64,000 nucleotides of DNA from Periweissella cryptocerci. Its GTDB lineage: Bacteria > Bacillota > Bacilli > Lactobacillales > Lactobacillaceae. Of this stretch, positions 20,415-46,718 are shown one piece after another; the first letter of the stretch is position 1; every line of letters starts with the position of its first letter. The translations under genes and the position numbers were made by a program. Below the pieces are notes generated by a model. That model ran no database searches and was not told the origin of the DNA. It worked only from the letters and a program-made list of their open reading frames with translations. The stretch covers positions 496,001 to 560,000 of the forward strand of contig NZ_CP037940.1 of assembly GCF_004358325.1 (NCBI RefSeq), in the 5' to 3' direction.

Positions 20415-20978
20415 TTAAATAATGCGAGCTTTAGAAGCACGCTCTGCAAGTGACGTGTTATTTTCCTTGCTACCAAGATTTACACCACTCTTAGGAGCTG
20501 ACTGACGTGCGCCAGCCTTAATCCCTTCGGCAATTTGCGTCTTGATAGTTTCGGAAACTTTTTCGATTGCGCCTTTAATTGTTTCGGTATCAACGCCGTT
20601 AACGGTAAATACATCTGCTAATTCAATCGGCAATCCTTGTTCGTTTAAATCAGCGACAACTTCACCATGCAATTCTTGAAGTGCAATCTTGGTTTCACGT
20701 TCTGCAATTTCTTGTTCGCGCTTTTCCATTTCAGCTGACTTCTTTTGCTCGGCGGTCATCTTGGCATACTTCGCAGCTTCTTCTTTTTCAGTTTCAAGCT
20801 TAGATGCGAATTCTTCTTGCTGCTTAGCTAGAGCAGTTTGAATAGCCTTATCAACCTTCTTATCAGTAAGCGAATCAACTTCCGCCTGCGTATATGTCTT
20901 TTCAGGTTCAACGCCTGCGTTGCCACCTTCTGTTCCGGTATCGGCCTCATGTAAACGAATCATACTTTTCAATAACAT
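20415..20978 (-). CDS. Capsid scaffolding protein (DUF4355 type)
   Basis: A 187-residue, highly charged, coiled-coil protein: an acidic start (HEADTGTEGGNAGVEPEKT), a long helical middle rich in Lys/Glu (residues about 35-110) and a flexible basic C terminus. This matches the DUF4355 scaffold family found directly upstream of the coat gene in SPP1-like and lactic phages. It helps the coat assemble and is then lost. Start ATG at 20978 with AGGAG. It is separated from the gene before it by a terminator, so it may have an own promoter. Confidence 0.85.
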   Translation of the reverse strand: MLLKSMIRLHEADTGTEGGNAGVEPEKTYTQAEVDSLTDKKVDKAIQTALAKQQEEFASKLETEKEEAAKYAKMTAEQKKSAEMEKREQEIAERETKIALQELHGEVVADLNEQGLPIELADVFTVNGVDTETIKGAIEKVSETIKTQIAEGIKAGARQSAPKSGVNLGSKENNTSLAERASKARII

Positions 20979-21094: not shown

Positions 21095-21122
21095 GACAAA
21101 ATAAAAAGCAACTCACAGTTGC
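21095..21122 (-). terminator. Terminator after the candidate immunity gene
   Basis: Stem GCAACT/AGTTGC (21108-21113 with 21117-21122), loop of three, then TTTTTATTTT on the minus strand. The stem includes the stop codon of the gene at 21113-21385. It divides packaging/portal/MuF genes from scaffold/coat genes. Confidence 0.8.
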
Positions 21123-21385
21123 ATGAATTGCTCTAAGTTAATTATCACATCATCTTTATCAAAACCGAAAGCTAGCAATTCTTTTGCTAGGTCCCAATCA
21201 TCGGGTCCAGAAACCCACGGAGTTACTTCAACTGAGCCCGCATCACTGTCGGCTGGTACGTTGTCAAGATTAACCCCGTTACTCAATTCCACGTATTCGA
21301 TAACCGAAGCGCTATCCCCGACGTAATTCACGAATAATATATCTTCCGCTTCTTCATACGAGATATTAGAAATCTTTAGTGCCAT
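21113..21385 (-). CDS. Small acidic protein overlapping the MuF gene; candidate immunity protein
   Basis: 90 residues, starting MALKISNISYEEAEDILFVN at the ATG at 21385 behind GGGGTGG. It is very acidic (about 19 Asp/Glu against very few Lys/Arg), globular and without membrane segments. Its start overlaps the last 20 bases of the MuF gene, so the two are translated together. A small acidic partner encoded directly after a protein with a basic nuclease-like tail is the known layout of polymorphic toxins and their immunity proteins. That function is inferred; the family itself is unknown to me. Confidence 0.75.
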   Translation of the reverse strand: MALKISNISYEEAEDILFVNYVGDSASVIEYVELSNGVNLDNVPADSDAGSVEVTPWVSGPDDWDLAKELLAFGFDKDDVIINLEQFMQL

Positions 21386-22952
21386 GAGTAACCACCCCTT
21401 TTTTATTTTTGAATTGTGTTTCCATTTGTCGAAGTGTTTTTGTATACGAAGTAAGCACATTGCTTTTTTTATCAATCAAGACAAGTCTGTACTCACCATC
21501 AATTTTTTTAACAAACGCCTTATTCATTCGATTTTCCACGTCATAAGAATCCATGATGAAATCAGGCTTCTTAATTGTTTCAATAATATTCGTAATTTTT
21601 TTCGGAGAATTTGCCGCTATTTCGTGGCGATTAAAAATATGTTCAAATGATTTTGAATTAAATTTAATCATCTTAATTTTCGTTTCAATCCCGTCGCCAA
21701 TCCCATTTTCAAATCGGTTGCGCAGGAATTTAAATTTTGCCTCATAAGCTTTATCAGCTGCGAATTTTGTTCGTAATTCCCGACGGTCATTTCGATACTT
21801 GGGTGTCTTACCCCGACTACCATTATACCCCTTCGACGCACCAGAATTGCTTTTGGGGCCTTTCGAATTGCGACTTTTGGGGTCGATTGAATCGACAACA
21901 TCTTCAGCAAGCGAATAATCCATTGGGTTATCTTCATTTGTCCCAAACCAACTACACCTGCAGTTCGGGTGTTGCGGAATAATTGGTGAACTAACATCTA
22001 TCGTTTCCACAGTTTTGATTGCAAACGTATGCTCATCATACGGCATACACATCTCACACGCACCGCTTTCAGCATGCCACATCATGTTCTTAAATCCGGC
22101 ATCCTTAGCATTGTTCACTGCAGCTCTGGCTCGAACACGTTGCATTTCGGTGTTGTACAATCTATCAACCGCAGCAAGCTTATTCTTAACCGACTTATCA
22201 AGCAACGGCACTAACCTTGCACGCGCTTGTGTAATATTCAAGCCTCGCATTAGAGTATCACGCATAGCAGCATTCAAACGATTCCCTAGTTCGGCTTGAT
22301 GATTCCACAACCTGTCGCTAAACGTTTGCCCGACGAACTTATTTTGAACCAACGACTTAATCATTCCCTCATCGATTTTAGGAATCTTAATGCCCATCGT
22401 TTTCGCATGCATAGCAACTTCGTTAGCGTAGTTCTGGATCATCTTTTCTTGAATCATGCTATCCAGATTCACGCCATGTTTTGCCATGACTTTGCCAAGT
22501 TGAATATTCATAAGTTCTAGCTCGGTGTTTCGATGAGCTAAATCATACGCTGCCATGAACTCTTTAGATTTACCAGTTTGCCAAGACTCGTTTAGAAACG
22601 CCTGTAAGTCCTTCTGCGCGCGCTTGTAATCTTGCAAGGGTATTTGCTTAGTTACGTTACCAAGCGTCACCATTCCGCCTTCGTTATTCTTTAATAGCCA
22701 CTCTGTTTGTTCTTTCCACAAATCATCTGCCATCGATTGATATTCATCGGCTAATTTGGCGTTAAACAGGCTATCAGACTTATTCCGAAAGTTTTCTAAT
22801 TCGTTTTCGCGTCTAATCCAATAGAGGCGATTTCTAAACGTGGCTTCTTTTGCATCGGCGGTAAGCGCTTTAGGCGTATCTGTAATTACTTTAGCGCTAG
22901 GAAACTCTTTGATGTAATTTTCAAGTTCGGATAAATCATGCAAGCTTCGCAT
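21366..22952 (-). CDS. MuF/SPP1 gp7-type minor head protein with C-terminal nuclease-like (toxin) domain
   Basis: A 528-residue protein. Residues 1 to about 340 are the minor head protein of the MuF family, with the signature ACEMCMPYDEHTF and HPNCRCSW. Residues 355-420 form a Gly/Ser/Lys-rich linker. Residues about 428-528 are an extra domain (MIKFNSKSFEHIFNRHEIAA, later KAFVKKIDGEYRLVLIDKKS and SNVLTSYTKTL) resembling the phage Barnase-EndoU-ColicinE5/RelE-like nucleases seen at the ends of MuF proteins. A plain gp7 is about 300 residues. The extra domain could act on the infected or lysed host, or be delivered by virions. It overlaps the portal gene and a candidate immunity gene. Confidence 0.85.
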   Translation of the reverse strand: MRSLHDLSELENYIKEFPSAKVITDTPKALTADAKEATFRNRLYWIRRENELENFRNKSDSLFNAKLADEYQSMADDLWKEQTEWLLKNNEGGMVTLGNVTKQIPLQDYKRAQKDLQAFLNESWQTGKSKEFMAAYDLAHRNTELELMNIQLGKVMAKHGVNLDSMIQEKMIQNYANEVAMHAKTMGIKIPKIDEGMIKSLVQNKFVGQTFSDRLWNHQAELGNRLNAAMRDTLMRGLNITQARARLVPLLDKSVKNKLAAVDRLYNTEMQRVRARAAVNNAKDAGFKNMMWHAESGACEMCMPYDEHTFAIKTVETIDVSSPIIPQHPNCRCSWFGTNEDNPMDYSLAEDVVDSIDPKSRNSKGPKSNSGASKGYNGSRGKTPKYRNDRRELRTKFAADKAYEAKFKFLRNRFENGIGDGIETKIKMIKFNSKSFEHIFNRHEIAANSPKKITNIIETIKKPDFIMDSYDVENRMNKAFVKKIDGEYRLVLIDKKSNVLTSYTKTLRQMETQFKNKKGVVTHGTKDF

Positions 22953-24456
22953 TCACATCACCGCCTTGCAAGTTGCCAGCGTCATCAATCGGCAACGCTG
23001 GTTCAGTCGGCATCATAGCTTCACGTTCATCTGCTTCTTCTTGAATCTGCTTAATTTCATCATCTGGGTTGTCGATATAAGGCTGTTGGCTAAGCATTGT
23101 TTTCTGTGATACTTGCAAGCCTAAGCCACTAAACGTCTCGACAGCTTCCTTAACGTTCTTAGGAAGGTTAGGTGTGAAGTCCACAGCAACGCTTGAATAC
23201 TCCTCACCTTCCCACTCGTTAACGCTACTTTCGATGTTAGCAACGAGATGATACCGTTCAATCAACCCCTTAATGAACCAGTTCTGGTGTGTAGAAGCCT
23301 TGTTTTGCATGCCGAGTAATTTATACTTCATTGCCTCACCGGAGATGTTTCCCATGAACTCGCTATCAGTTAAATCAATCGTATATGAGAACTTATGAAT
23401 ATCGTTCGTAAGACGTTTCTTGTATGCTTCAATTCCTGCGACATCATATTGCTTGTAAATATAGTTAGCGCCCATTTGCGTTTGCTTACCACTTGAATCA
23501 ACGCCGGATTGCAATGCCAAAATATTAGCACGTGCCATTCCAATCATGTCATCTGCGCTTAAGCCAGCACCATCAATATCACCAGTAATAACTAACATTG
23601 CGTCGACTAAATCTTGCATGTAGTTTGCTGTATCTGATTCGCTACCATCATAGAGATTGATTAGCGGAATGACCTTCTCAAACGTACTCTTGCGTTCGCG
23701 GTCGAGTTGCCACTCAACAATCGGCACACGCTCAAACGCATGCGCTTCTTCGCTATTCAATACTAGCTGTCCAGATTCGATAGCCGTCTCGTTGAACACT
23801 ACTGCCTTATTGTTTGTGTAAACGGTAATCAAATACTTGTTCTCGTCTAACGCAACAGGGCGATAGCTAACTGCCATGATTGGCTTAGGCTTGATGTCGA
23901 AGTTATAGATTACGAATGTGTTTAATGGATCCAGACGAACGACAACATCCTTATCATCTTCCGAGCGGTACCACAGTTCATATCCGCGACCAAACACTGC
24001 AGCGTCTAAATAGACTTCGGTATTAAGCGCGTCGATTTTGTTGTAATCGTTAATCTCATTGATTTGCGCAGTACCCTTATCATCGTTTGGAATAGCAATT
24101 TTAAGAGGTACACCAGTATCATATGCAGTAAAGAAGTTAGCGATATACTCGCCAAACGAATGAGTTGCACGGTTATCAGCTTTCTCTTTACCGATACGCC
24201 TATCACCAGTCAAAATACCAACGTTATTACCGTCGGCATATGATTTTAAATACTTTAATCGTGGCGCTTGGTGCTCTTTATGGTGTTGAATGAATTTCAT
24301 CAATTCTGATAGGTTAGATAGCAAATCAGCTGCTTCACCGTTATACGTATATCGAATATTCGATTGCGCATCATATCTTTGCGTCTGATTAAATCGATTA
24401 ACATTAATGTCATTCTCAAACTCATTCGCTACTGGTATCAACACTTCGTCTGTCAT
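22936..24456 (-). CDS. Portal protein, SPP1 gp6 type
   Basis: A 506-residue portal that forms the dodecameric DNA entry ring of the capsid. It has the SPP1-family pattern: a helical N terminus, DRRIGKEKADNRATHSFGEY and TAYDTGVPLKI in the wing, the crown and stem region with SGEAMKYKLLGMQNKAS near residue 370, and an acidic C terminus. Start ATG at 24456 overlaps the terL stop. The MuF gene start lies inside its 3' end. Confidence 0.93.
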   Translation of the reverse strand: MTDEVLIPVANEFENDINVNRFNQTQRYDAQSNIRYTYNGEAADLLSNLSELMKFIQHHKEHQAPRLKYLKSYADGNNVGILTGDRRIGKEKADNRATHSFGEYIANFFTAYDTGVPLKIAIPNDDKGTAQINEINDYNKIDALNTEVYLDAAVFGRGYELWYRSEDDKDVVVRLDPLNTFVIYNFDIKPKPIMAVSYRPVALDENKYLITVYTNNKAVVFNETAIESGQLVLNSEEAHAFERVPIVEWQLDRERKSTFEKVIPLINLYDGSESDTANYMQDLVDAMLVITGDIDGAGLSADDMIGMARANILALQSGVDSSGKQTQMGANYIYKQYDVAGIEAYKKRLTNDIHKFSYTIDLTDSEFMGNISGEAMKYKLLGMQNKASTHQNWFIKGLIERYHLVANIESSVNEWEGEEYSSVAVDFTPNLPKNVKEAVETFSGLGLQVSQKTMLSQQPYIDNPDDEIKQIQEEADEREAMMPTEPALPIDDAGNLQGGDVNAKLA

Positions 24457-26272: not shown

Positions 26273-27235
26273 TTAATTGTCTATCTTTGAAATTCCATTC
26301 CAAAATAACTTCTCTACGTTCTTAGTACGCTTAGCTGTATGACTAAACGTTTCGGCTTTAACCTTGCCCCAGATAACTTCAAACGGAGCATTGTACTCGC
26401 TAATGAATACAGGCACCGTTTGCTCGCTTACCCACTTATCGAACGCTTTAGTATCAAACTCTTGTGCATAACCTGCTGTCCCTCTATACGGTGGGTCAAC
26501 ATAGATAACTGCATTATCCGGAATTTCAATTGTACGATAATCTCCATTTGAAAAAGTGAGTTGCTTGCGTCGATTAAGTTGCTCAAGTCTTTGCAAATGT
26601 TCGAGGCGATTGAGTTGTTCGAGCCCTTGCAAATGTTGTAATACCGTTTCGTTCAATTCCAAATTAAGCTTTTTAGTAATTTGACCGAAACTTAATCGAC
26701 GCACCTTTAAATCTCGGCCTTTATAAGTATTTTCTCCGGTATCAAATACACTAAAGGCATCTGTGCTGAATTGTCTATTCAACTTATCAATTGATTGCTT
26801 ATCGCCAAACACTACCGCATAGTGACCTAATTTTTTGAATGGTTCGATGTCGGTTCCGTATAAGTATGAAAACTTTGAGACTCCATTACCAAATGACCAG
26901 ACGATACGAATGAAGCTGCTTAAAACACCGTCTTGCTTGACTAGTTCATCTGCTTCTTCGTGGCTGTACCACTTGTAAAACTCATCTGGAAATTCTTCAT
27001 GCGTCATAACATATTCGAATAGCTCATATGTTTTAGGATCCAGCTCGTTGTAATGAACCGGAATCCCGTTTTCAACTACGGCAGCAGTCATCGCACCTCC
27101 ACCGCCAAACAAGTCGTATAACACGAAGTCTCGCGTACCGACCTTATTAACAATCTTTGAGAGTATCTGTCCAGACAGAGCGCGTTTGCTACCTTGATAA
27201 GGCATGCCAAGTTTTGATGATTTAATTTTTAACAT
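26273..27235 (-). CDS. D12-class DNA adenine methyltransferase with leucine/glutamine-rich insert
   Basis: A 320-residue Dam-type N6-adenine DNA methylase. Visible motifs are PYQGSKRAL near the N terminus, YDLFGGGGAM (motif I, SAM binding) and VIYVDPPYRG (motif IV, DPPY). The region between them carries an insert with repeated units LQHLQGLEQLNRLEHLQRLE followed by QLNRRKQL, which looks like a recently expanded 7-to-14-residue repeat. The enzyme could protect phage DNA from host restriction. Start ATG at 27235 lies inside the end of the ParB-like gene and uses its own GGGTGG site; an upstream reading to 27259 is less likely. Confidence 0.88.
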   Translation of the reverse strand: MLKIKSSKLGMPYQGSKRALSGQILSKIVNKVGTRDFVLYDLFGGGGAMTAAVVENGIPVHYNELDPKTYELFEYVMTHEEFPDEFYKWYSHEEADELVKQDGVLSSFIRIVWSFGNGVSKFSYLYGTDIEPFKKLGHYAVVFGDKQSIDKLNRQFSTDAFSVFDTGENTYKGRDLKVRRLSFGQITKKLNLELNETVLQHLQGLEQLNRLEHLQRLEQLNRRKQLTFSNGDYRTIEIPDNAVIYVDPPYRGTAGYAQEFDTKAFDKWVSEQTVPVFISEYNAPFEVIWGKVKAETFSHTAKRTKNVEKLFWNGISKIDN

Positions 27236-27761
27236 GGAATACCACCCGATTGCCTTCAAACTCTGGCATGGTAATTAAATCAGCTGAGCTTAACTTTGAG
27301 AGCGCAGCAACTACCTTGTCGAAGTTATCGCCTCCAGTTTCAATATCATCATCTTCAAACTCATCGTCATCTAAATCATCAAGCGTGGTAACATCTGCGA
27401 AACCAAAACCGCTCATATCAATATCAGTCAATTCAAGTTCTTGTAATTCAATTGCTAAGGCATCCATATCCCATTCCGCAATTTCGCCAACCTTGTTATC
27501 AGCGAGACGGAATGCTTTTACTTGCTCCGGACTTAAATCATCGGCAACGATAGTCGGCACTGTTTCTAGTCCCAACTTTTTAGCTGCCTTAACTCGTGTG
27601 TGGCCAGCGATGATTTCACCGTTACCATCAACAATTACCGGCACTTTAAAGCCGAACTCATCAATAGAACGTGCCACCGCATCAACCGCTTGGTCATTGA
27701 ATCGGGCATTATTAGCGTATGGAATCAATTCATCAATCAACTTATCTATAATTTGCATCAT
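27222..27761 (-). CDS. ParB/Srx-domain protein next to a methylase
   Basis: A 179-residue protein with the ParB N-terminal fold: IDELIPYANNARFN, VPVIVDGNGEIIAGHTRVKA (the GEIIAGHTR catalytic/CTP-type box) and FRLADNKVGEIAEWD. Such phage ParB-like domains are commonly fused or adjacent to DNA methylases just before terminase genes, as here. The C-terminal tail is very acidic (DDLDDDEFEDDDIE). It probably binds or processes DNA; partition is unlikely for an integrated phage. The start is the ATG pair at 27761. Confidence 0.85.
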   Translation of the reverse strand: MMQIIDKLIDELIPYANNARFNDQAVDAVARSIDEFGFKVPVIVDGNGEIIAGHTRVKAAKKLGLETVPTIVADDLSPEQVKAFRLADNKVGEIAEWDMDALAIELQELELTDIDMSGFGFADVTTLDDLDDDEFEDDDIETGGDNFDKVVAALSKLSSADLITMPEFEGNRVVFHVKN

Positions 27762-28312
27762 TTCACCGTGCTTTCTACTTTTTATGTTATTAGACAAAAA
27801 AATAACGTTTGTCTTTAATCTGTTGTCTCCACCCTGTGCAGGAATAGCACTTTGGAGTTGTCAGCTAAAACGAACGTTAATTAATTATGTACGGACAAGC
27901 TATCGGAATCATGGTCGCACGATACCAAATTACGGCTTGCCTCTTGTGTATCAATCTTCATAGAGAGACACCTCACGTAATCAGAAAGGTGTTTCATATC
28001 TCGCTAAAACTTCGGCCATCTTAAAAGCCATCAGCGCTTATCACGGCAAGACTACGAACATGCGAGAGTACGACCCCTCTGCTTCACGTTAACAATCCGC
28101 AAGCCATGTCCAGCATTGGTTCGTCTACTGATAACTCAGCCAATGCAATTTGTATTAAACTCATTTATTAAAAACAATTCAAGACTATTCAAGAGGAGGA
28201 ACCAACTACTCTCGAAAGCCAATCGAACTCATTACAGTTTTGCTTCGCACGCCACCACCCAGTGTGTAGTTCGTTCGGCTGCGTGCCTGTTTCGTCTTGC
28301 TCTGAATTCTAT

Positions 28313-44878: not shown

Positions 44879-45274
44879 GTGAATAAAATTGAACAGTTAG
44901 AATCTAATTGGCCTGATTACAAATTCATAGCAGATTCAAGCATGCCAATCGGTTTACCCGCATTAAACGTTAACGATAAAGTATACTGGAATCCGAACGT
45001 GCCGTTTAATACTATTTGGACAATTATCGCCGAAGAAATCGGACACGGCGAAACAACTTCTTGCCATGACATCACGAGGCAACTTACCCCGCAAGAATGG
45101 AAGGAGGAACGTACTGCGCGTGATTTCGGATTAGAGATAGCAATACCGTTCAACACGTTCAGACGCACTTTAACGAGCTATTATGACAATGATTGGGAGG
45201 CAGCCAATGATTTAGAAATTGATTTGAATACATTGCACGCAAGAAAAGAACTTTATGATAAAAGAGGAATCTGA
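44879..45274 (+). CDS. ImmA/IrrE-type metallopeptidase-like protein
   Basis: 131 residues of the Peptidase_M78 group. The zinc motif region reads IIAEEIGHGETTSCHD, with E-E-I-G-H where many members have H-E-x-x-H; variants with Glu at the first position are common in phage members. ERTARDFGLEIAIP follows, the usual third ligand region. In ICEBs1-type systems ImmA cleaves the repressor. The start is a GTG at 44879 after AAGGATGTGAAG. It ends just before the integrase start. Confidence 0.8.
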   Translation: MNKIEQLESNWPDYKFIADSSMPIGLPALNVNDKVYWNPNVPFNTIWTIIAEEIGHGETTSCHDITRQLTPQEWKEERTARDFGLEIAIPFNTFRRTLTSYYDNDWEAANDLEIDLNTLHARKELYDKRGI

Positions 45275-45275
45275 A

Positions 45276-46718
45276 ATGAAAACCGCTATATATGTACGCG
45301 TTTCAACCGAAAGCCAAGCGGAAGATGGGACTTCGATTGATACCCAAATCGAGAAATTAACGATGTACGCGGAAATGAATGACTGGAAAAATATCGAAAT
45401 TTACAACGATGCTGCGCACTCTGGTTCATCGTTCAATCGCCCTGCAATTCAGCGCTTAATCGCCGATATGGAGCACGGAGAAATCGCTCGGGTACTAATT
45501 TACAAGTTAGACCGTTTGAGCCGTTCACAGCTCGATACGCTGTCATTCATTGACAAGTATATTTCACGCTTAAACATTCCATTGATTTCATTCACGGAAA
45601 AACTTGATACTGAATCTGCAGCCGGCCAAATGATGATCGGGATCATGGCTTCATTTGCTCAATATGAACTTTCAAATATCACTTTGCGAATGCAAACAGG
45701 ACGCGCAGCACGCGCTCAAGCCGGCTACTGGGGTGGTGGTAGTCGCACGCCTTTCGGCTACGATTACATTGATGGTGAACTAATCGTTAATGAATTAGAA
45801 GCTACCGTTGTACGTGACATCTTCAATCGTTACGAAGCCGGTATTTCACTCACCAAGTTGCGCGATGAATTAAACGAAGCTGGCCACATTGGCAAATCGC
45901 GCGATTGGTCATTCACCACGCTACGGCAAGTTATCATACGCCCCATTTACGCCGGTTTAATAAAATGGAAAGGTGTAATATACGAAGGTCGCCATGAAGC
46001 ATTAATTTCAAAAGAGCAATATGATAATGTTCAAAAAAGCATTTTAGTTCGGCAAAAAAGAGCATATGAAGCGTCTGGGAACTCGCGCCCTTTTCAAGCA
46101 AAATATATGCTTAGTGGGTTGCTAATTTCCGCATACTCCAAAGCACCATTAACGTTAGACCAACGAGCATTACGTAAAAACGCGACTGAACGCGACAAAT
46201 ACTATGTACGTCCACGTCCACAAGGTGCATCTTCATATACGAGAAATTACACATCTGAACTTCGTGAATTGGATAAGCAAATCCGCCCGCATAAAATCGA
46301 GGAATATGAGGCTCTTGTACTATTTGAAATCGCTGGCTTAATTGGTACGGTTCCAAGTGCGGTAAAAAAAATAGATCGTCGTGTTGAAACGTACAAGCTA
46401 GAATTAACTAACTTGGATGCGCAACGTTCACGCCTGCTCGACATGTATCAATTAGATGCAATTACCGCCAGTGAATTTTCAGAACGAATTGAGGTTGTTG
46501 ACCGTCAACATAATTCACTTCTCAAAAAAATTGCAAAAGAGGAAGAAAAGGGTGATGAGCAAGGCACCGAAAACTTCAAAAACGTTTTCTCATCAATCCC
46601 CGAAATTTTAGAGAACGGGACTTATGACCAAAAAAAAGCGTTAGTGCGTGCTCTCATCGAAAAGGTAGAAGTCAGTGCGACTGAGCTAATTATTCGGTGG
46701 CGTTTCACAGAACAATAA
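45276..46718 (+). CDS. int: Large serine integrase, TP901-1 type, without cysteines
   Basis: 480 residues. The resolvase domain has catalytic Ser10 in AIYVRVSTESQAEDG and the arginine box YKLDRLSRSQ. The recombinase domain follows (GISLTKLRDELNEAGHIGKS), and the C-terminal region begins PFQAKYMLSGLL. In TP901-1 relatives this is followed by a zinc ribbon with CGYC and a second Cys pair. Here the positions read ISAYSKAPL and YYVRP ... SYTRNY, and I find no Cys in the whole protein. A coiled coil (about 350-430) and the end IIRWRFTEQ complete it. It integrates into comGC. ATG at 45276 with AGAGGAA. Confidence 0.93.
   Translation: MKTAIYVRVSTESQAEDGTSIDTQIEKLTMYAEMNDWKNIEIYNDAAHSGSSFNRPAIQRLIADMEHGEIARVLIYKLDRLSRSQLDTLSFIDKYISRLNIPLISFTEKLDTESAAGQMMIGIMASFAQYELSNITLRMQTGRAARAQAGYWGGGSRTPFGYDYIDGELIVNELEATVVRDIFNRYEAGISLTKLRDELNEAGHIGKSRDWSFTTLRQVIIRPIYAGLIKWKGVIYEGRHEALISKEQYDNVQKSILVRQKRAYEASGNSRPFQAKYMLSGLLISAYSKAPLTLDQRALRKNATERDKYYVRPRPQGASSYTRNYTSELRELDKQIRPHKIEEYEALVLFEIAGLIGTVPSAVKKIDRRVETYKLELTNLDAQRSRLLDMYQLDAITASEFSERIEVVDRQHNSLLKKIAKEEEKGDEQGTENFKNVFSSIPEILENGTYDQKKALVRALIEKVEVSATELIIRWRFTEQ

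What the first reader, a model, noticed from the sequence alone, without database searches (positions are those of the whole stretch)
21113..22952. MuF head protein with an added nuclease-like toxin domain and an overlapping acidic candidate immunity gene
Seen: the minor head gene is 528 codons, with the MuF/SPP1 gp7 core ending near residue 340, a Gly/Ser/Lys-rich linker, and an extra C-terminal domain of about 100 residues (428-528). The next frame (21113-21385) overlaps it by 20 bases, has a strong ribosome site, encodes 90 very acidic residues, and is followed at once by a terminator. Known: temperate phages of Firmicutes carry MuF proteins fused to polymorphic toxin domains with neighbouring immunity genes. 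Inferred: this is such a pair, with a PBECR-like nuclease. The immunity family looks unfamiliar to me and may be new. Virion-bound toxin could be delivered to the next host or act on competitors.
Basis: partly seen in the sequence, partly recalled or inferred. Interest (0 to 1): 0.85.

Follow-up and report, generated by a model that had tools for sequence, protein, structure and literature searches.

The report
Phage head protein carrying RNase-like toxin
A virus sleeping in a lactic acid bacterium carries a head protein whose tail end looks like an RNA-cutting toxin, followed by a small acidic gene that probably protects the carrier; related pairs turn up in other lactic acid bacteria and in streptococci, where the protective gene also occurs alone, once inside a phage satellite.

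Summary
A prophage with an integrase gene carries a 528-residue MuF minor head protein (21366-22952, minus) with a basic C-terminal domain (residues 406-528), overlapped by 20 bases by a very acidic 90-residue ORF (21113-21385). The tail is a PBECR-like (barnase/EndoU/colicin/RelE type) predicted RNase: it matches Pfam PBECR3 below the curated cut-off and is homologous to five intact tails from a Streptococcus phage, a Streptococcus chromosome and two Ligilactobacillus genomes. The catalytic-type His and Thr are invariant in all six. Each of the five relatives has an acidic neighbour gene, and these neighbours form one family for which I found no model. The cassette sits on two MuF types, on a protein without MuF match and as an orphan, the hallmark of polymorphic toxins. 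Immunity-only copies occur in a phage satellite and a chromosome. The window's own partner agrees in position, size and charge but is not recognisably of that family. Structure prediction could not be run. Verdict: a MuF toxin-immunity pair, new member of a known kind, partner undescribed. The most interesting leads lie in the relatives: satellite-borne immunity, and a host Prp-protease motif at the MuF/toxin junction.

The parts
21366..22952 (-). MuF minor head protein with C-terminal PBECR-like domain, 528 aa (P0001)
21951..22277 (-). MuF domain proper (PF04233, residues 226-334)
   Evidence: E 4.3e-6, 27.9 bits, cut-off 29.6; PHROG minor head 2.8e-42
21738..21941 (-). Gly/Ser/Lys-rich linker, residues 338-405
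   Evidence: read
21369..21737 (-). Predicted RNase toxin domain (PBECR-like), residues 406-528; H438, H443 and T501 (and R442 in one of two alignments) are the conserved positions
   Evidence: PBECR3, E 8.5e-5; homologues; invariant columns; numbering
21113..21385 (-). Candidate immunity protein, 90 aa, charge -16, pI 4.1 (P0002)
   Evidence: position as in relatives
21392..21400 (-). Ribosome-binding-site-like AGGGGTGG of the candidate immunity gene, inside the end of the MuF gene
   Evidence: read
21098..21122 (-). Terminator-like hairpin and T run closing the pair (weak)
   Evidence: 3 sites in the stretch, 2.1 expected
22936..24456 (-). Portal protein (context)
   Evidence: PF05133 E 4.3e-90
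20415..20978 (-). Scaffold protein DUF4355 (context)
   Evidence: E 4.9e-20
45255..46718 (+). Integrase, serine type by its DNA-invertase similarity (context: temperate phage)
   Evidence: phrog_95 integrase E 1.3e-111, phrog_125 DNA invertase E 1.7e-40

Best explanation
A MuF polymorphic toxin and its immunity gene in a temperate phage. The MuF part is a minor head protein that (by analogy with SPP1 gp7) sits in the procapsid near the portal; the C-terminal domain is a metal-independent RNase of the BECR type that cuts RNA in the cytoplasm of the cell it enters with the DNA, or in which it is made. The 90-residue acidic protein, translated from a start codon inside the end of the toxin gene, is made together with the toxin, binds the basic domain, covers its active site, and protects the producing cell and later the lysogen. 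A phage carrying the toxin thus gains an edge against cells lacking the partner. Shown here: the gene arrangement, homology of the tail, conservation of the catalytic-type residues, movement of toxin-immunity cassettes between carriers, the basic/acidic pairing. Inferred: RNase activity, inhibition by binding, virion packaging, delivery.
For: Tail matches PBECR3 and is homologous to the tails of Streptococcus phage Javan199 (27% identity, E 9e-12 for the single comparison) and Ligilactobacillus ceti (E 6e-7). Four of four related proteins scanned against Pfam also match PBECR2 and/or PBECR3 below cut-off (E 9e-5 to 0.02). H33, H38 and T96 of the tail are invariant in six of six. Carriers of the cassette: PF04233-type MuF (window, Javan199, truncated in L. 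ceti), PF06152-type MuF2 (G295, E 1.8e-78), a 193-aa protein without MuF match in Streptococcus sp. 121, an orphan beside the MuF copy in L. ceti. Six of six toxins are basic (pI 8.8-10.0) and six of six partners acidic (pI 4.1-4.4). A seventh, decayed pair in G631 keeps the end of the toxin and then the partner in one frame. In 29 other MuF loci of the host family a small ORF adjoins 11 of 12 long MuFs but 3 of 17 short ones, Fisher p 1.2e-4, repeating the published pattern (PMC5576092, first part of Results).
Against: The Pfam score is below the curated cut-off (22.9 against 30 bits). No structure could be predicted. The window's partner is not recognisably homologous to the partners of the related toxins, so its immunity role rests on position, overlap and charge. 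Its GC is that of the phage, not of the AT-rich tail, so the two need not have arrived together. P0002 has no homologue outside its own genome and own viral record in what was searched, so conservation of the pair itself cannot be tested. No experiment.
Confidence: 0.76

Rival explanations
1. The tail is a true PBECR-like RNase but works for the phage itself (early mRNA or host defence RNA cleavage on injection), and the 90-residue protein is an inhibitor or regulator that keeps the enzyme quiet during head assembly rather than an immunity protein against rivals.
For: Iyer et al. 2017 (PMC5512222, passages read) propose mRNA or CRISPR RNA targets for PBECR domains in injected phage proteins. 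The partner would look the same in sequence.
Against: Orphan toxin, orphan immunity and satellite immunity copies in relatives fit conflict between elements better than a purely internal role.
Confidence: 0.12
2. The 90-residue ORF is an ordinary small phage gene (head or unknown function), not linked to the tail; true immunity is absent or elsewhere.
For: P0002 does not match the immunity family of the related toxins (15.7 against 91.5-159.9 for its members; not listed at E 10 by an HMM of the family). Three of 17 short MuFs also have a small neighbour. Its GC does not follow the tail's.
Against: All five intact relatives keep an acidic partner at this place; P0002 has a similar overlap, size and charge. 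Small ORFs beside non-PBECR tails are less often acidic: 3 of 12 ORFs at ten loci have pI below 5; the list left out L079, whose ORF has charge -7, and L063, which has none. A global profile alignment of P0002 with the family beat 500 of 500 shuffles (first Met kept), though by a small margin.
Confidence: 0.09
3. The tail is a degenerate or purely structural extension of the head protein.
For: Phage Mu's own MuF carries a PBECR domain described as inactive (PMC5512222, passages).
Against: Catalytic-type His and Thr kept in six of six; 17 of 29 other MuFs in the host family do without a tail; composition unlike the core.
Confidence: 0.03

Closest known systems
MuF polymorphic toxins of temperate Firmicutes phages (Jamet et al. 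2017, PMC5576092; first part of Results, and Discussion read)
   Same: MuF head domain after portal, C-terminal toxin-like domain, small ORF directly downstream, temperate phage of Firmicutes
   Different: Tail subfamily has no match above cut-off in Pfam, and the partner none in Pfam, PHROGs or NCBIfam
PBECR domains fused to MuF and portal proteins (Iyer et al. 2017, PMC5512222; passages read)
   Same: BECR-type motif layout (His early, Thr late), MuF fusion, phage context
   Different: Below the PBECR3 cut-off; relatives score on both PBECR2 and PBECR3, also below cut-off; the passages seen name no immunity family for PBECR
BECR toxins delivered by MuF in the catalogue of Zhang et al. 2012 (PMC3482391; passages read)
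   Same: BECR-fold toxins listed with MuF carriers and with their own immunity families
   Different: No match of the partner to any Pfam immunity family here
Apk2-IapK-Aph1 of a Streptococcus pneumoniae prophage (PMC12226406; passages read)
   Same: MuF toxin with an adjacent small inhibitor gene; toxicity and inhibition shown there
   Different: (p)ppApp synthetase, not an RNase; has a second, enzymatic immunity
Bxa-Bsi-BAH of a Bacteroides stercoris prophage (PMC11699363; passages read)
   Same: MuF-fused toxin neutralised by adjacent immunity proteins
   Different: ADP-ribosyltransferase; Bacteroides host
Toxin-immunity pair of Streptococcus phage Javan199 (MK448702, 19260-20928)
   Same: Homologous tail (27%), 17-base overlap with a 97-aa acidic partner
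   Different: Partner belongs to family A14; the window's partner does not detectably

Membership tests
MuF polymorphic toxin | MuF domain, gene next to portal in a head module | tested here: met
   PHROG minor head 2.8e-42, portal next door; Pfam PF04233 E 4.3e-6 but 1.7 bits under its cut-off
MuF polymorphic toxin | C-terminal toxin-like domain with homologues on other carriers | tested here: met
MuF polymorphic toxin | small ORF under 150 aa directly downstream | tested here: met
   comparison set
MuF polymorphic toxin | temperate phage | tested here: met
   integrase gene in the phage region of a chromosome; attachment sites were not looked for
MuF polymorphic toxin | toxicity relieved by the partner | not testable with these tools
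   needs expression
PBECR3 (PF18812) | score above curated cut-off | tested here: not met
   22.9 bits against 30; hence called PBECR-like, not filed as PBECR3
BECR-type RNase | His in the first helix and Ser/Thr late in the domain | tested here: met
   H33, H38, T96 invariant in all members; layout from PMC5512222; that the His lies in a helix is not shown
BECR-type RNase | BECR fold | not tested
   Structure prediction busy at 20 attempts (first, last)
BECR-type RNase | RNA cleavage | not testable with these tools
   needs an assay
Immunity family A14 (partners of the related toxins) | P0002 recognised by the family profile | tested here: not met
   local score 15.7, reached by 12 of 500 shuffles; members left out one at a time score 91.5-159.9. 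Global mode: 0 of 500 shuffles as high, but 17.4 against a best shuffle of 16.4; not listed at E 10. (smaller profile): 4 of 400 shuffles

The most novel reading that the evidence does not exclude
This toxin family is a weapon in conflicts between mobile elements inside Gram-positive cells, not only between cells: phage satellites and chromosomes carry the immunity gene alone as protection against MuF toxins of phages they share a cell with, and in some hosts the ribosome-maturation protease Prp, which already cuts phage scaffold and capsid proteins, also cuts the toxin off the head protein. The window's partner would then be an independently recruited or extremely diverged inhibitor of the same toxin fold.
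Probability: 0.25. Interest if true: 0.78.

Novelty: new member of a known kind. Interest (0 to 1): 0.52.

Why it matters
In the papers seen here only a few MuF toxins (Apk2, Bxa, the EFV toxin) have been worked on, and what they do for a phage is open. This pair and its relatives form a small, clean set: one toxin fold, at least one and perhaps two kinds of acidic partner, several kinds of carrier. That makes three things directly testable: whether a PBECR-like tail is a toxin with a dedicated inhibitor, whether an orphan immunity gene in a satellite protects against a phage-borne toxin, and whether a host protease frees the toxin from the head protein.

Tried and rejected
Close relatives of P0002: none in 50,697 phage records, 72,556 plasmid records, viral contigs except the window's own phage (pattern-based, finds close relatives only), or four other genomes of the genus. 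In 300 other genomes of the family nine matches at E 0.03-0.1; eight lie in open frames of 210-1116 aa and one in a frame of 85 aa; I dropped all nine on score without reading them one by one.

Single-sequence search with the tail: nothing in phages at E 10, only its own record in viral contigs. In 300 other family genomes eight weak matches: L013 (L. ceti) proved real; L014 and L016 (through stop codons), L015, and L017-L020 were dropped after reading. The profile search found G295. In one search four matches in frames of 614-627 aa (L094-L097) were dropped as chance; two were read and look like DnaG primase (recalled). In one search two matches (L085, L086) were dropped; both were read and look like ImmA-type proteins (recalled).

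That the host belongs to the same family as Ligilactobacillus and that G295 and G237 are of its genus follows from the kinship columns.

PDB sequence searches with tail, tail profile, partner family and P0002 gave no credible relative. PADLOC was not searched. The two G237 partners were not scanned against any family library, the G295 partner only against Pfam, the L. ceti orphan toxin not against Pfam.

Considered and rejected: that P0002 belongs to the partners' family (not met); that the Prp motif is present in the window's MuF (absent, as in the 12 other long MuFs of the host family).

Full report
What is there. The window lies at 496001-560000 of a single 3.02 Mb contig. It holds a tailed phage with terminase, portal, MuF, scaffold and capsid genes, an endolysin and an integrase; attachment sites were not looked for. 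The MuF gene (21366-22952, minus) encodes 528 residues; the next gene (21113-21385) encodes 90 residues from an ATG 20 bases inside the MuF gene. The 90-codon frame is coding by codon usage (+0.25 per codon against -0.24 to -0.85 for the other five frames), is strongly acidic and ends in a terminator-like hairpin that by itself is weak evidence. The tail of MuF is AT-rich (GC 31.7%) compared with its core (42.8%), as an imported piece could be; the 90-codon gene is not (42.1%).

The tail. Pfam gives one hit there, PBECR3 at 427-513, E 8.5e-5, under the curated cut-off. The tail is homologous to the C-terminus of the MuF of Streptococcus phage Javan199 (27% over 90 residues, E 9e-12 for that single comparison) and to a tail in Ligilactobacillus ceti (E 6e-7). 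With a 193-aa protein in Streptococcus sp. 121 and a second copy in L. ceti this makes six intact tails. Seven columns are invariant in the six, among them H33, R37, H38 and T96, that is H438, R442, H443 and T501 of the window's protein. R37 depends on how one gap is placed: in the five-row alignment it is not invariant, while H33, H38 and T96 are. Iyer et al. [quoted passage not shown] Small proteins matching PBECR3 above cut-off occur in 16 of 395 genomes of the order (frames of 114-142 aa); seven of these kind align with the tail family over 82 columns (hhalign E 0.0015, probability 17%), and four are picked up by the tail HMM at E 8e-4 to 0.008.

The partner. Each of the five intact relatives has an acidic ORF of 97-109 residues beside the toxin: overlapping by 17 bases in Javan199, 16 in Streptococcus sp. 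121, 11 in G295, 11 or 20 (depending on the start codon) in the L. ceti MuF copy, and 19 bases downstream in the L. ceti orphan copy. These five, with three orphans, form one family (alignment A14, eight members). Six of the eight were scanned against Pfam and five against PHROGs and NCBIfam, without a significant match. In all six pairs the toxin is basic (pI 8.8-10.0) and the partner acidic (pI 4.1-4.4). The window's P0002 fits this by place, size and charge, but not by sequence: left-out members of the family score 91.5-159.9 against the profile, P0002 15.7, reached by 12 of 500 shuffles; in global mode none of 500 shuffles reaches it, by a small margin. An earlier, smaller profile gave 4 of 400. 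An HMM of the family run over 2,254 frames of the fetched loci and the window does not list P0002 at E 10. So it is either a very diverged member or a different inhibitor.

A decayed pair. In the same HMM run one 149-codon frame of G631 (L043, streptococcal family) matches the end of the toxin profile at residues 2-37 (E 0.0016) and then the partner profile at 57-117 (E 1.4e-4): the remains of a further toxin-partner pair, in order.

Cassette mobility. The same toxin with the same kind of partner hangs on a PF04233-type MuF (Javan199 and, truncated, L. ceti), on a PF06152 Phage_min_cap2-type MuF (G295, E 1.8e-78), on a protein without a MuF match in a streptococcal chromosome, and alone next to the L. 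ceti MuF copy (an in-frame stop lies just upstream of that orphan, so it may be a cut-off remnant rather than a gene in its own right). This is the pattern of polymorphic toxin modules. Immunity genes without a toxin occur in Streptococcus satellite phage Javan620 (73.7% identity to the Javan199 partner; the Javan199 toxin has no match in that record at E 0.01) and twice in G237, beside a toxin fragment in a 39-aa frame.

Control in the host family. A search with the MuF core found 36 MuFs, the window's included, in 32 of 301 genomes. I examined the 29 loci handed out besides the window's (three of their matches contain a stop codon); six further matches had no locus and were not examined. Twelve are long, 17 short. 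An ORF of 45-149 codons starting from 60 bases before to 30 after the MuF stop is present in 11 of 12 long and 3 of 17 short (Fisher p 1.2e-4). The 12 tails are diverse: two ADP-ribosyltransferases above cut-off, six with HExxH by eye, the rest unassigned. None matched PBECR at the thresholds used. This agrees with Jamet et al. [quoted passage not shown]

How it most likely works. The MuF part places the protein in the head, the tail acts as RNase in the cytoplasm, and the acidic partner blocks it in the producer and the lysogen. Only arrangement, homology, residue conservation, charge pairing and cassette mobility are shown; the rest is inferred, with Apk2/IapK (PMC12226406, passages) and Bxa/Bsi (PMC11699363, passages) as tested precedents for a MuF toxin and a neighbouring inhibitor.

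A lead from the relatives. In L. ceti and G295 the MuF/toxin junction reads MNLQLF-GKS and MNLQFF-GRR. This resembles the cleavage motif of Prp, the host protease that trims ribosomal protein L27, found through the cleavage of phage 80alpha scaffold and capsid proteins (PMC9405229, passages read). The L27 start of each host resembles its own phage variant: MLMNLQLF-AHKK in L. ceti, MLKMDLQFF-SKHK in G295. The strict motif occurs three times in 90,907 residues of frames of 150 or more residues in the loci fetched by then: these two junctions and the start of a frame downstream of the MuF in L058, not identified further. Javan199 and Streptococcus sp. 121 have at most degenerate versions; the window's MuF and the 12 other long MuFs have none. 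Searches for the motif, for Prp with L27, toxin and phage, and for MuF with Prp listed no paper that by title or abstract makes the link (the last lists 10 of 25); the one motif paper has no occurrence of MuF or toxin in its text. The catalogue of Zhang et al. names papain-like proteases for the MuF system (PMC3482391, passages). All this covers open-licence PMC text only.

Satellites. A search for satellite, polymorphic toxin, immunity gene and prophage together found no paper, and one for three of satellite, immunity protein, phage toxin and MuF found one unrelated paper.

Verdict.

Noticed in passing
L041:4501-4800 (Streptococcus satellite phage Javan620, MK448581 7945-8244); apparently the same element as L088: A phage satellite carries the immunity gene of this toxin family (73.7% identical to that of phage Javan199) with no toxin match in its record: possible protection of a satellite or its host against a phage toxin.
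   Followed up: partly
L045:10813-11646 and L090:241-1854 (junctions), L102, L103 (host L27): Prp-type protease motif MNLQ[L/F]F-G at the MuF/toxin junction, resembling the L27 cleavage site of the respective host; suggests release of the toxin by a host protease.
   Followed up: partly
L045:9877-11956 (Ligilactobacillus ceti): Between genes that look like chromosomal ones, a truncated MuF-toxin with partner and an orphan toxin with partner, all as open frames (a stop lies just upstream of the orphan).
   Followed up: partly
L091 (G237), minus strand: Two orphan immunity genes of this family, separated by one frame, beside a toxin fragment in a 39-aa frame and near a gene that looks like that of ribosomal protein L19 (recalled).
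   Followed up: partly
L043:1540-1989 (G631): One frame holds the end of the toxin domain and then the partner: a decayed pair.
   Followed up: partly
L101 (own genome, 445229-445468): The host's L27 has an unusual start, MLLNMETLTMF-AHHK, and no prp-like frame lies between the genes that look like L21 and L27, unlike in the two Ligilactobacillus genomes (L102, L103; gene names by eye).
   Followed up: no
L052-L080: MuF tails in the host family are diverse: ADP-ribosyltransferase, six with HExxH by eye, one with an HNHPESGRLS stretch (L071) recalled as JAB/RadC-like, others unassigned.
   Followed up: partly
window 26273-27797: DNA methyltransferase and ParB-like protein genes lie directly upstream of the small terminase gene.
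   Followed up: no
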